DNA of 48,689 nucleotides from an uncultured Lachnospiraceae bacterium (GTDB taxonomy: Bacteria; Bacillota; Clostridia; Lachnospirales; Lachnospiraceae), in the NCBI GenBank assembly GCA_947173945.1, contig CAMWGV010000014.1:1-48689 (forward strand), written 5' to 3'. The notes under the pieces were generated by a model, which was given only the letters and a program-made list of their open reading frames with translations, was not told the DNA's origin and did no database searches. The stretch's first letter is position 1, and each line of letters starts with the position of its first letter. Both the position numbers and the translations under genes were made by a program. Below are positions 18,080 to 22,420 of the stretch, in pieces.

Positions 18080-19107
18080 ATAAACACAGCTATGAAATAG
18101 GAAAATTTAATAAATGGTTTGCAATTTGCGCAAGTATTCTTTTGCTTGCGTTTTTTTGCTGTACTTATGCCGTTCTTCAGGAATTTGGGAAGGCACTTTG
18201 GACTTTAACGGGTTTGTGCCTTTTCATAGAAGCTGTAATATACATTTTGGTCAGATATGAGCTTGGAACATTATGCAATGAAATTTCTTATGCATCAGAC
18301 ATAATGGTAAAACTCGTAGAGGAGGGGGATATACCCTCTGAGCCTTATAAGCAGGGGGAGATGGGCGAGCTTTACACAAACCTTTACAAGCTTGTAGGGA
18401 CGCTTACTGAAAGCAAGCAGAAGGAGCATGAGGAAAAAAAATTCCTGCGGGATATCATGTCAGATATTTCCCACCAGCTGAAAACACCGCTTGCATCACT
18501 GAATGTCTTTATTGATTTGCTCTATGATGATATGGTTATGGAACCTGAAAAAAGAAAGCAGATGCTTGAGGAGTCAAAAAATCAGCTCAACAGAATGGAG
18601 TGGATGGTGCTTTCCATGCTTAAGTTGGCAAGAATAGAGGCGGGCGCCATACAGTTTGAAAAGGAGCCAAATAATCTAAATACACTTTTGCTTCAGGCTG
18701 TGGAGGTTGTAACATATCTCACTGACGGCAGAAGGCAAAATATAGCTGTGGATTGTCCGGAGGATATAACGCTTGTGTGCGACTCCGGATGGCTTGTGGA
18801 GGGCATAATTAACCTCTTAAAAAATGCTTCCGATTATTCTCCTGAAAATTCAGAAATAAAAATAGAAGTGGAAAAGACGCCTGTATTCACAAGAATATAT
18901 GTCAAGGACAATGGAATGGGCATCCCTGACGAGGATTTACCAAATATATTTAAACGTTTTTACCGTGTGAACAAGGAGGTAAATCCAAACAGTGTGGGTA
19001 TAGGGCTGTCCCTCACAAAATCCATAGTGGAGGGAATGGGAGGAAAAATAACAGTCCGCAGCCGGCTCGGTGAATACACCCACTTCATATTGACCTTTGT
19101 ACATTAA
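18076..19107 (+). CDS. Histidine kinase with minimal extracellular loop
   Basis: The 343-residue kinase has two membrane helices (about 14-34 and 41-59) joined by only about six residues (QEFGKA), so it has no extracellular sensor domain. A linker and dimerisation domain follow with His133 in DISHQLKTPLAS, then the catalytic domain with N-box NLLKNASDYSP, DNGMGIPDEDLPNIFKRFYR and the G2 box GIGLSLTKSIVEGMGG. This is the layout of intramembrane-sensing kinases such as BceS, which read the state of a partner ABC transporter rather than binding ligand themselves. It is the last gene of the module, and a large hairpin element begins at its stop codon. Confidence 0.92.
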   Translation: MNKHSYEIGKFNKWFAICASILLLAFFCCTYAVLQEFGKALWTLTGLCLFIEAVIYILVRYELGTLCNEISYASDIMVKLVEEGDIPSEPYKQGEMGELYTNLYKLVGTLTESKQKEHEEKKFLRDIMSDISHQLKTPLASLNVFIDLLYDDMVMEPEKRKQMLEESKNQLNRMEWMVLSMLKLARIEAGAIQFEKEPNNLNTLLLQAVEVVTYLTDGRRQNIAVDCPEDITLVCDSGWLVEGIINLLKNASDYSPENSEIKIEVEKTPVFTRIYVKDNGMGIPDEDLPNIFKRFYRVNKEVNPNSVGIGLSLTKSIVEGMGGKITVRSRLGEYTHFILTFVH

Positions 19108-19447
19108 AAACGGGGGTTGACTGTCCGATAATTTTATACCACAATATAAGAAAACCGTTATGAAGACGTCAGTACTTGAGTTAACAGCACGACAGGGCTT
19201 ACACAATGACATAAAAACACGCTCCCGCTCGATAAAGACGTAACGGCACTAAAAATTGCCAGTTTAAGACAATCCCAAGCAAGGATATTTTAGATTGGCA
19301 ATTTAAGTGCCGACGTCTTTATAACGGTTTTATGTCACTGTGTAAGCCCTGTCGTGCTGTTAACTCTTAGTACTGTTACGTCTTTATCGAGCGAAAGCGT
19401 GTTTTCGATATTGTGGTATAAAATTATCGGGCAGTCAGCCCCGTTTT
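19107..19447. repeat. Long hairpin element A
   Basis: A 341-bp inverted-repeat structure fills the gap between two convergent genes. Outer arms AAAACGGGG (19107) and CCCCGTTTT (19439-19447) are followed inwards by CGATAATTTTATACCAC on both sides. A 35-bp segment at 19178-19212 recurs inverted at 19332-19366 with one mismatch, and the apex is ATTGCCA/TGGCAAT. Between these lie two related segments, a (AAAACCGTTAT, then AAGACGTC) and b (AAACACGCT, then CTCGATAAAGACGTAAC), placed a-b on one arm and b-a on the other. No reading frame is present. The right end, with GGGC/GCCC and TTTTCTT, could also terminate the kinase transcript. Confidence 0.8.
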
Positions 19448-19478
19448 CTTAGTAGCGAACTGCAATGTAGAAGACGTT

Positions 19479-20888
19479 TTATTCCAGGTCCTCTCCGTTT
19501 GTTGCAATTACGTTTTTGTACCAGTAGAATGAGTCTTTTTTGTAGCGTGCCATATCCTTAAGGTCAAATTCATCACGGTTTACATATATGAAACCATATC
19601 GCTTGACGATGCCCTCGTGGGTTGAGATTAGGTCGATTGCAGACCACGGACAATAGCCCATCATTTCAACACCTTCAGATACAGCAAGTTTGATTTGCTC
19701 AATATGTCTGCGTAAATATTCGATACGATAATCATCATGTATTTTGCCATCCTCGGTAAGCTTGTCATATGCACCAAGACCATTTTCCGTGACAATCATA
19801 GGAAGATGGTATCTGCTGTACATTTCGCGGACGGTAGCCCTGAATCCATCTGGGTCTATCTCCCAGCCAAATTCAGTGCGAAGCAGATTCGGATTGACAA
19901 AATTCTTGTAGATACCCGGTTCACTTGAGCCTGTCTGTTGGTTTCCTGTAACTGCTTCACCGCTTCCATCGCTCCACTCAACGGTGGCGGTAGAATAGTA
20001 GTTGAAGCCTATAAAATCAGGATGACCCTCTGCCATGATATCCATGTCACCCGGCTCTATATGGGGAACGGCATCCCGTTCCTCTAAAAACTGCCATGCA
20101 AGATTGTTGTAACGTCCGTAAACAGCCATGTCCAGATAAAGCCAGTTACGGATTGCATTCAGATTTTGGGCAGCCAAAATATCCTTTGGTTTACAGCTTG
20201 CAGGATAGATAAGCGATATATTTGGGGCAGGGCCTATTTTAGCATTCGGAAGCATATCGTGACAAAGCTTCATAACCTTTGCCTGAGCAAGAAGCATATG
20301 ATGGTTTGCCTGATAGAGCTTTTTATATTTGTTTGTCACACCGTCAAAATTACTTGTTCCCAGAACATCGCCTACAAGTGTAAGCATATTTTGTTCATTT
20401 ATTGTCAGCCAGTATTTTACTCTGTCACCGTAATTTTCAAAAAGTATTTTTGCAAAGGTGACAAACTCGTCGATACTTTCACGTCTTGACCAGCCGCCTT
20501 TTTCCTCAAGAGCCTGAGGCAGGTCAAAATGGAACATTGTAACAATAGGCTCTATGTTATATTTCAGACATTCGTCAATAACATTTCCATAAAATTCAAT
20601 ACCTTTTGGATTTATTTCTCCTGCACCTTCAGGAAGTATTCTTGTCCATGCTACAGAAAAGCGAAAGGCCTTAAAGCCCATTTCAGCCATAAGAGCAATA
20701 TCTTCCTTGTAACGGTGATAGAAGTCGGCACATACATCAAGCTCGCTTGTTCCCTCCGGTACGGTTTTGACATCCTGAACACTTGGTCCTTTTCCATCAA
20801 TAAGATTTGCACCCTCAACCTGATATGCACTTGTAGATGCACCCCACAAAAAATTTTCAGGCATTTTTTTGTTTTTTGTAATTATCAT
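19479..20888 (-). CDS. bglA: GH1 6-phospho-beta-glucosidase
   Basis: The 469-residue enzyme is a full-length glycoside hydrolase family 1 barrel: N-terminal [15 protein letters not shown], acid/base Glu165 in TINEQN (usually NEP), and nucleophile Glu368 in VTENG. Ser422, Lys429 and Tyr431 (S-x6-K-x-Y) match the phosphate-binding triad of 6-phospho-glycosidases, where non-phospho GH1 enzymes have glutamate at the first position. It should therefore cleave 6-phospho-beta-glucosides such as cellobiose-6-phosphate in the cytoplasm. AGGAGGG precedes the start by about five bases. It follows the ROK kinase gene by 88 bp on the same strand. No PTS gene is present, so the phosphate may come from that kinase. 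Confidence 0.93.
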
Positions 20889-20976
20889 AGCGCCCTCCTA
20901 GTTTAAAAATAAAATTTAGCTTTTACTGTAGTGCCAAAGGCACTTTGTTCTATAATTTGGAACATATGATTTGAAA

Positions 20977-21942: not shown

Positions 21943-21969
21943 ATTTTTCTCCTTTTCAGATATAACTAC

Positions 21970-21975
21970 ATTATA
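21970..21975 (-). promoter_or_regulatory. Likely -10 of the kinase-glucosidase operon
   Basis: On the minus strand TATAAT lies 28 bp ahead of the kinase start. No clear -35 hexamer is seen at 17 bp, so an activator may be needed. Confidence 0.45.
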
Positions 21976-21990
21976 TAATAAATTATTGAT

Positions 21991-22420
21991 GGTATTTGGG
22001 CAAGGACTTTTAGTAAAATATCCCAATCACAAAATCACAGATTACGTTATTAAATGTCTGCCCAAGAAGCTTTATACGGTAATGACGAAAACACGCTCTC
22101 GCTCGATGAAAAACGTAACGGTACTAAGAGTTGGTAGCACGACAGGAGTTATACAGTGACATAAAACCGTTATAAAGACGTCGGCACTTAAATTGCCAAT
22201 TTAAGATATTCCAGCTTGATATTGTCTATAAACTGGCAATTTTTAGTGCCGTTACGTCTTTATCGAGCGGGAGTGTGTTTTTATGTCACTGTATAACTCC
22301 TGTCGTGCTACCAACTCAAGTACCGACGTTTTCATAACGGTTTTCTTTTATTACCGTATAAAGCTTCTTGGACAGCCCACCTGATAATTTTATTTATGAT
22401 TTTGTGATTGCCCACCAACC
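21991..22420. repeat. Long hairpin element B, inverted relative of A
   Basis: A 430-bp inverted-repeat structure lies between two divergent genes. From outside in: TTGGGCAA and TTGCCCA; AATCACAAAATCA (22024-22037 with 22397-22410); AAGAAGCTTTATACGGTAA at 22064 and inverted at 22352-22370; and a 35-bp segment at 22128-22162 repeated perfectly inverted at 22283-22317. The same a and b segments as in element A are present but in the opposite order, and the loop aligns with the reverse complement of loop A. So B is an inverted copy of the same family. It contains no reading frame. Confidence 0.8.

What the first reader, a model, noticed from the sequence alone, without database searches (positions are those of the whole stretch)
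19107..22420. Two inverted hairpin elements flank the kinase-glucosidase pair and covary between arms
Elements A (19107-19447) and B (21991-22420) are the same family in opposite orientation, judged from segment order (a then b against b then a) and from loops that align as reverse complements. In each, a 35-bp segment recurs inverted (19178/19332 and 22128/22283). Between A and B that segment differs at six positions (AAC to GGT, GC to AG, C to T), and in each element both arms carry the matching version. Pairing is therefore kept despite sequence change, by selection for base pairing or by arm-to-arm conversion. The pair encloses a two-gene sugar cassette like a composite element, yet there is no transposase. 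I know no named family with the swapped a-b/b-a arm architecture.
Basis: partly seen in the sequence, partly recalled or inferred. Interest (0 to 1): 0.75.

Follow-up and report, generated by a model that had tools for sequence, protein, structure and literature searches.

The report
Mobile nested RNA-hairpin repeat of Lachnospiraceae
The two odd hairpins are copies of a widespread, apparently undescribed family of small mobile DNA repeats in Lachnospiraceae-type bacteria whose transcript would fold into a conserved RNA shape, here in a doubled form in which a second, reversed copy sits inside the first.

Summary
A and B belong to a family with 40 detected units in this genome (lower bound), and the window holds a third, simpler copy at 14929-15047. 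The unit is a hairpin with a conserved, covarying core and a GNRA tetraloop on one strand (57 of 57 aligned units; 25 of 32 pairs with two-sided changes). No Rfam family matches. A covariance model finds it in 157 of 397 genomes of the window's family and in 4 of 299 genomes across the phylum, all four of that family. Copies move: a relative has the locus with an A-like element and both sugar genes but an empty B site, so A and B are independent insertions, not ends of a composite element. The 'a-b/b-a' architecture is nesting: one unit in the apical loop of another, in antisense. Both modules keep GNRA, each on its own strand, in 26 of 28 two-level elements. Arm matching is best explained by template-switch correction plus selection on the core. 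The mobilising enzyme was not found; RNA as the acting form is inferred.

The parts
19108..19447 (.). Element A: two-level nested hairpin between convergent genes; outer arms 19108-19147 / 19408-19447
   Evidence: Inverted repeats (I3, I5, I6, I7, I18); fold; two-level orthologue in G036; decayed orthologue in G021
19163..19383 (+). Outer module of A, read on + (P 19163-19177 pairs with R' 19367-19383); GNRA hairpin GCGAAAGC at 19391-19398
   Evidence: Tokens; letters; only a weak covariance-model hit on +, 19208-19424, 29.3 bits, which does not reach the P token
19195..19345 (-). Inner module of A, antisense to the outer; GNRA hairpin on - at 19221-19228 (GCGGGAGC)
   Evidence: Covariance-model hit 67.3 bits, E 3.9e-19; letters
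19178..19366 (.).
   Evidence: I5 (97%); row L001
22027..22414 (.). Element B: two-level nested hairpin, inserted relative to G021
   Evidence: Empty site in G021; fold; inverted repeats
22149..22300 (+). Inner module of B, read on +; GNRA hairpin GCGGGAGT at 22267-22274
   Evidence: Covariance-model hit 63.8 bits, E 5.7e-18; letters
22069..22360 (-). Outer module of B, read on -; GNRA hairpin on - at 22095-22102 (GCGAGAGC)
   Evidence: Covariance-model hit 56.2 bits, E 1.8e-15; letters
22023..22026 (.). CCAA, left copy of a candidate 4-bp target-site duplication of B
   Evidence: Single CCAA at the G021 empty site
22415..22418 (.). CCAA, right copy of the candidate duplication
14929..15047 (-). 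Third copy in the window: canonical one-level unit
   Evidence: Covariance-model hit 77.3 bits, E 2.1e-22; fold z -6.29

Best explanation
A and B belong to an undescribed family of small non-coding mobile repeats, common in Lachnospiraceae. The basic unit (about 120-170 nt) is a hairpin: a variable outer stem, a junction where a short GNRA-capped hairpin leaves the main helix on one strand only, a conserved helix (GACGUC GGYACUUA / UUAGURCC GYUACGUC) and a variable apical hairpin. The conserved shape, the GNRA loop and the covariation indicate that the single strand from P to R' folds and is selected, most likely as RNA (shown: covariation and GNRA; inferred: RNA rather than single-stranded DNA). 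Copies have spread to new sites, most often downstream of genes (shown: identical copies in unrelated flanks and absent sites in relatives; inferred: mobilised in trans by an enzyme not identified). In this genus a unit also sits antisense in the apical loop of another, giving two- and three-level hairpins whose modules alternate in direction (shown). Such elements lie mostly between convergent genes, so a transcript from either side contains one correctly oriented module (the positions are shown; the use is inferred). Near-perfect arms are kept by template-switch correction between arms during replication, with selection protecting the asymmetric core (inferred from joint divergence of the arms and retained GNRA).
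For: Many copies: 69 DNA matches, several per element, in the own genome; R1 units in 37 of 37 same-genus genomes, 40 matches in the own genome, 157 of 397 family genomes and 138 of 334 genera, 4 of 299 phylum genomes, all four of this family. Covariation: 25 of 32 pairs with two-sided change, 86.6% of cells paired, 0 of 500 shuffles as good on four measures and 1 of 500 on the fifth; slid controls 31-40% paired. GNRA in 57 of 57 rows, closing pairs compensated in some. Mobility: three copies in G261 identical over 157 bp with unrelated flanks (26-37% identity); precise empty site for B in G021; a one-level insertion in G028 at a site contiguous in G021 and G000; the L003 and L080 elements absent from G021. 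Nesting: all 28 four-token and 4 clean six-token clusters alternate, three further three-level clusters do so if one weak token is ignored, and no cluster read PPrr or RRpp; the modules of B are found on opposite strands; GNRA in 26 of 28 outer and 26 of 28 inner modules. Arms: 94% complementary within, 59% identical between. Context: 22 of 32 nested elements between convergent genes against 8 of 71 background gene pairs, p 9e-9.
Against: No mobilising enzyme found: no Y1 transposase and no DUF772/IS1182-type protein in the genome; other transposase, integrase and reverse-transcriptase families were not searched. The two clean junctions give different overlaps (CCAA, 4 bp; TA, 2 bp), so target duplication is not established. 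One-level copies in tandem gene pairs show no consistent direction (antisense against sense: 20 and 15 in mixed records, 21 and 5 in one MAG), unexpected for a cis-acting RNA. B lies between divergent genes, against the trend. Nested against one-level copies within the genus do not differ significantly in convergent placement (p 0.09). Four pairs of the stem beside the core pair in only 22-39 of 57 rows. The GNRA count takes the best-scoring octamer in a short stretch, which favours GNRA. Alternation may have one or few origins. The arm pattern is weaker in another MAG: 85% complementarity within and 65% identity between, in the 52 of 76 units that could be read. No transcription data.
Confidence: 0.72

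Rival explanations
1. A and B are the two ends of a composite element that carries the kinase-glucosidase cassette.
For: Inverted orientation around a two-gene sugar cassette.
Against: G021 has the same genes with an A-like element but an empty B site; G036 has A with a kinase only 66% identical and no B aligned in the 7 kb fetched. Whether other copies bracket cassettes was not examined.
Confidence: 0.03
2. The conserved fold acts as single-stranded DNA (substrate of a hairpin-recognising recombinase or HUH enzyme), not as RNA; d(GCGAAAGC)-type mini-hairpins are very stable in DNA (recalled).
For: Elements occur in either direction relative to genes; nested modules are antisense to each other; mobility.
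Against: The loop varies as GNRA (GAAA, GAGA, GCAA, GCGA, GGGA) with compensated closing pairs; no Y1 transposase in the genome.
Confidence: 0.17
3. They are mainly host bidirectional terminators or 3'-end stabilisers that spread by duplication.
For: Nested elements sit between convergent genes (22 of 32), in several printed copies directly after stop codons; some related hairpins end in T runs.
Against: The simple terminator scan marks only an internal stem of each element, at 19295 and 22199, though it cannot see hairpins this long; B is between divergent genes; a plain terminator needs no conserved GNRA junction.
Confidence: 0.15
4. Arm pairing is only a by-product of template-switch correction and nothing about the fold is selected.
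For: Arms change together, in length too (mean difference 0.57 nt within, sd 2.1 nt between elements); one subfamily shows an inner inversion (my reading), an expected by-product (PMC8604942, start of abstract in the listing).
Against: Correction would level the asymmetric P/R' junctions, yet they persist across the family with GNRA intact.
Confidence: 0.08

Closest known systems
Structured MITEs such as bcr1 (Bacillus cereus group), NEMIS/Correia, ERIC
   Same: Small, non-coding, dispersed, intergenic, transcript would fold strongly, no own transposase (traits of the group as given in part 1 of PMC3733652, and recalled)
   Different: Wide range within one family, GNRA three-way junction, nested alternating copies; no transposase-bearing parent or uniform target duplication found; sequence comparison with bcr1 not made
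REP/BIME, including GTAG- and CGTC-tagged REPs (PMC3733652; part 1 of 8 and passages read)
   Same: Palindromic, after genes and between convergent genes, inverted units forming larger hairpins; the CGTC class also lacks a known transposase
   Different: REPs are 20-40 bp with stems of 5-13 bp; here 120 to about 540 bp with a conserved junction; no Y1 transposase in the genome; that paper's text has no 'Firmicutes' or 'clostridi'
Template-switch-maintained RNA hairpins (PMC8794818; abstract and outline read)
   Same: Joint changes in both arms keep stems paired
   Different: That work treats RNA genes; here long dispersed mobile hairpins with a protected asymmetric core

Membership tests
MITE | Short, no coding capacity | tested here: met
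   340 and 388 bp; no ORF of 80 aa or more lies wholly inside A or B
MITE | Terminal inverted repeats shared by copies | tested here: inconclusive
   GGGCTGTCGCACTAAG-like ends on part of the copies in this genus; ends differ in other records
MITE | Target-site duplication of fixed length | tested here: inconclusive
   CCAA (4 bp) for B, TA (2 bp) for the G028 insertion
MITE | Parent element with transposase sharing the ends | tested here: inconclusive
   27 end-pattern matches in G000, part of which I read without seeing a transposase element; no PF01797 or PF05598 hit; other transposase families and distant end pairs not tested
REP/BIME | 20-40 bp palindrome with GTAG or CGTC tag, RAYT partner for the GTAG class | tested here: not met
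   Unit size and structure; no Y1_Tnp in G000
Known structured RNA family | Match to a curated covariance model at its gathering score | tested here: not met
   Rfam 15: only a 6S match in the window; nothing over the elements in 16 loci; hits below threshold are weak and of unrelated families
Composite transposon | Both ends and cargo move together | tested here: not met
   G021 has an A-like element and cargo without B
IS200/IS605-type palindromic non-autonomous element | Y1 transposase in trans | tested here: not met
   own genome only

The most novel reading that the evidence does not exclude
A self-nesting mobile RNA: the folded GNRA module is itself what the mobilising machinery recognises, and units insert by preference into the apical loop of existing units, always reversed, building hairpins that present a correctly oriented RNA module on transcripts from both strands between convergent genes. 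This would be a class of structured mobile RNA, centred on Lachnospiraceae, with built-in two-way reading.
Probability: 0.2. Interest if true: 0.85.

Novelty: new variant of a known kind. Interest (0 to 1): 0.66.

Why it matters
A conserved, covarying RNA-like motif present in about 40% of sampled genomes of a major gut bacterial family (157 of 397), with dozens of copies in some, has no Rfam match and no paper found here. It gives a natural system for testing how long hairpins stay perfectly paired while their sequence turns over (template switching against selection), and whether a bacterial mobile repeat can be a functional RNA. The nested, alternating form is a clear, testable oddity.

Tried and rejected
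Local accident of duplication: rejected by copies in many genomes. Composite element: rejected by the G021 locus. Known RNA family: no Rfam match. RAYT/IS200 or IS1182-type partner: none in the own genome. Partner gene beside the elements: 114 of 214 listed neighbour proteins match 192 Pfam families; the 25 shown are ordinary functions with no transposase among them, the other 167 were not shown. Phages and plasmids: no match to A in the phage collection, none to one unit in plasmids, no exact pattern match in viral contigs. Direction of one-level copies: inconsistent between groups. A regex token scan timed out and was replaced by a mismatch scan. A first automatic tetraloop finder misplaced the loop and was replaced by column counts on the alignment. 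Irregular token strings contain weak tokens of 4-5 mismatches; no well-supported same-direction nesting was seen. A first impression that one MAG (CANRVK) has a different paired stem in nearly every copy did not hold: of 52 readable units of 76 there are 38 versions, 10 units share one, and only 28 pair at 80% or better. Paper searches for a description found none: searches returned no paper, one on another organism, and of the 215 papers the 10 listed do not mention Lachnospiraceae.
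Full report
CHECK. Elements A and B are present as described. Each folds as one long, nearly perfect hairpin, far beyond dinucleotide-preserving shuffles (z -28.2 and -22.9). The six two-arm differences between A and B are real; a seventh difference is on one arm of A only (letters).

WHAT THE UNIT IS. Two tokens recur, P (about AAAACCGTTTGAAGACGTCGGTACTT) and R (about AAAACACGCTTTCGCTCGTCTCAGACGTAACGGTACTAA). 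P pairs with the reverse complement of R, which carries an extra GCGAAAGC-type hairpin. The simple unit is P, apical loop, R' between two variable stem arms; the records found carry mostly this one-level form. From 191 extracted units I listed 80 after size and redundancy cuts and aligned 57 of these (alignment A1). With the structure named, 86.6% of cells pair, 25 of 32 pairs have two-sided changes and the covariation score is 0.405 against 0.151 in shuffles. No shuffle of 500 reached the value on four measures, one did on the fifth. Sliding the partners leaves 31-40% paired. Four pairs beside the core (columns 27-30 with 96-99) pair in only 22-39 of 57 rows. The tetraloop columns read GAAA, GAGA, GCAA, GCGA or GGGA in all 57 rows, with closing pairs compensated in some. 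This pattern, on one strand only, points to folded RNA in the P-to-R' direction.

RANGE. Rfam 15 has no match over the elements (window: only 6S; 16 loci; sub-threshold scans). Model R1 finds units in 37 of 37 same-genus genomes and 0 of 24 genomes of other families of the order. In the window's family, 157 of 397 genomes and 138 of 334 genera are positive at E 1e-8, with only 8 candidates scored per genome, so this is a lower bound. In a sample of 299 phylum genomes four are positive, all of this family; the kinship of most negatives was not listed. I take the family to be Lachnospiraceae because contig lengths identify G036 with the record set JAAVIA, titled Lachnospiraceae bacterium, and because most titles that are not of one MAG say so; Oribacterium parvum ACB1 and a Roseburia MAG are among them. 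MAG records titled Mogibacterium (L156, L200), Bacteroides (L139) and Eubacteriaceae (CANRVK) also carry units: wrong labels, contamination or a wider range, not resolved.

THE NESTED FORM. In this genus many of the copies fetched have two levels: P Q R, loop, P' Q' R' (or its reverse complement), and some have three. The covariance model finds the two modules of B on opposite strands (22149-22300 +, 22069-22360 -). For A it finds the inner module on - (19195-19345) and only a weak hit on + that does not reach the P token. All 28 distinct four-token clusters and four six-token clusters alternate P and R; three more (L033, L045, L054) do so if one weak token is ignored; other irregular strings contain weak tokens of 4-5 mismatches, and no cluster read PPrr or RRpp. 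Shared descent means these are not independent events. In the 28 two-level elements the outer and the inner module each keep a paired GNRA hairpin on their own sense strand in 26 cases (the script takes the best octamer in a short stretch, which favours GNRA, but the printed octamers are nearly all canonical).

ARMS. The stem between levels is 94% complementary within an element (28 elements) but only 59% identical between elements (378 pairs), and the two arms differ in length by 0.57 nt on average while elements differ with sd 2.1 nt. In one MAG (CANRVK) a stem outside the core behaves likewise but less cleanly: 38 versions in 52 readable units of 76, 85% complementarity within, 65% identity between. 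Template switching during replication is reported to create and maintain such hairpins (PMC8794818, abstract and outline) and to homogenise arms and invert spacers (PMC8604942, start of abstract in the listing). One subfamily here shows what looks like such an inversion: the inner part is flipped relative to an asymmetric outer layer in L071 against L080 and L068 (my reading). Since such correction should erase asymmetric junctions, the persistence of P/R' with GNRA argues for selection on the core.

MOBILITY. Three copies in G261 are identical over 157 bp while their 300-bp flanks are only 26-37% identical. Relative G021 has the syntenic locus of the window. Between the ROK kinase and the glycosyltransferase it reads AAAATATCCCAACCATTGACATTT, where the window has the same letters split by B, with CCAA at both edges (22023-22026 and 22415-22418). 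Element A is present in G036 as a two-level hairpin (the 3.26-kb stretch is 88% identical) and, decayed to the inner level with traces of the outer, in G021. A is thus older than B, the cassette exists with A alone, and the pair is not a composite element. G028 carries a one-level unit at a site where G021 and G000 are contiguous, with a TA overlap. The three-level element of L003 is absent from G021 (45 bp in place of 539), and the L080 element is absent from G021 and G028; these two sites are not clean to the base. The two clean junctions do not agree on a duplication length, so the mechanism is open. No Y1 transposase or DUF772 protein occurs in the genome; other enzyme families were not searched.

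CONTEXT. With a crude ORF caller, nested elements lie between convergent genes in 22 of 32 cases (32 of the 36 loci listed had ORFs on both sides within 600 nt; A and its G036 orthologue are both in the list), against 8 of 71 background pairs in the same-genus loci (p 9e-9). Units in the records (mixed genera, among them G036's own assembly and the CANRVK MAG): 23 of 98 (of 141 units) against 54 of 490 (p 0.0017). Nested against one-level within the genus: 22 of 32 against 5 of 13, p 0.09, not significant. A follows the trend; B, between divergent genes, does not. In tandem gene pairs one-level units show no consistent direction. The neighbours of A and B are a sensor kinase with its response regulator, a GH1 6-phospho-beta-glucosidase-like and a ROK/BglK-like protein, and a glycosyltransferase (hits below the curated cut-offs, so family-level names only).

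VERDICT. A structured mobile repeat widespread in one bacterial family, with a nested variant in this genus. What is shown: conserved covarying fold, GNRA, range, gain and loss at sites, nesting and alternation. What is inferred: RNA rather than DNA as the acting form, trans mobilisation, template-switch upkeep of arms, two-way function between convergent genes.

Noticed in passing
window 14929-15047, strand -: Third copy of the family: a canonical one-level unit between an ABC-transporter ATPase gene and the next gene; its outer sequence resembles the one-level insertion found in G028.
   Followed up: partly
window 39859-40039, strand +: 6S RNA (Rfam RF00013, 74.3 bits).
   Followed up: no
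L062, L063, L065, L066, L081, L082: Short hairpins with the same GGGCTGTCGCACTAAG-like ends but no P/R' core, some followed by a T run; either deletion products or the hairpins into which units insert.
   Followed up: partly
L071, L080, L068: Similar copies in which the inner part looks inverted relative to an asymmetric outer layer: a possible template-switch spacer inversion.
   Followed up: partly
CANRVK records, e.g. L089-L201: One MAG with at least 76 extracted units and conserved sequence reaching beyond the hairpin.
   Followed up: partly
L223 (G170:C21) and L200: Tandem arrays: three units 187 bp apart in L223, at least three units 177-189 bp apart in L200.
   Followed up: no
L204: The sequence left of a G261 unit (CCTGTAGTATCGCAAAACTAC...) also occurs without the hairpin just upstream, so it may be a separate repeat or a preferred target.
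   Followed up: no
L139, L156, L200: Units in MAG records titled Bacteroides sp. and Mogibacterium sp., outside the family; mislabelled MAGs, contamination or transfer.
   Followed up: no
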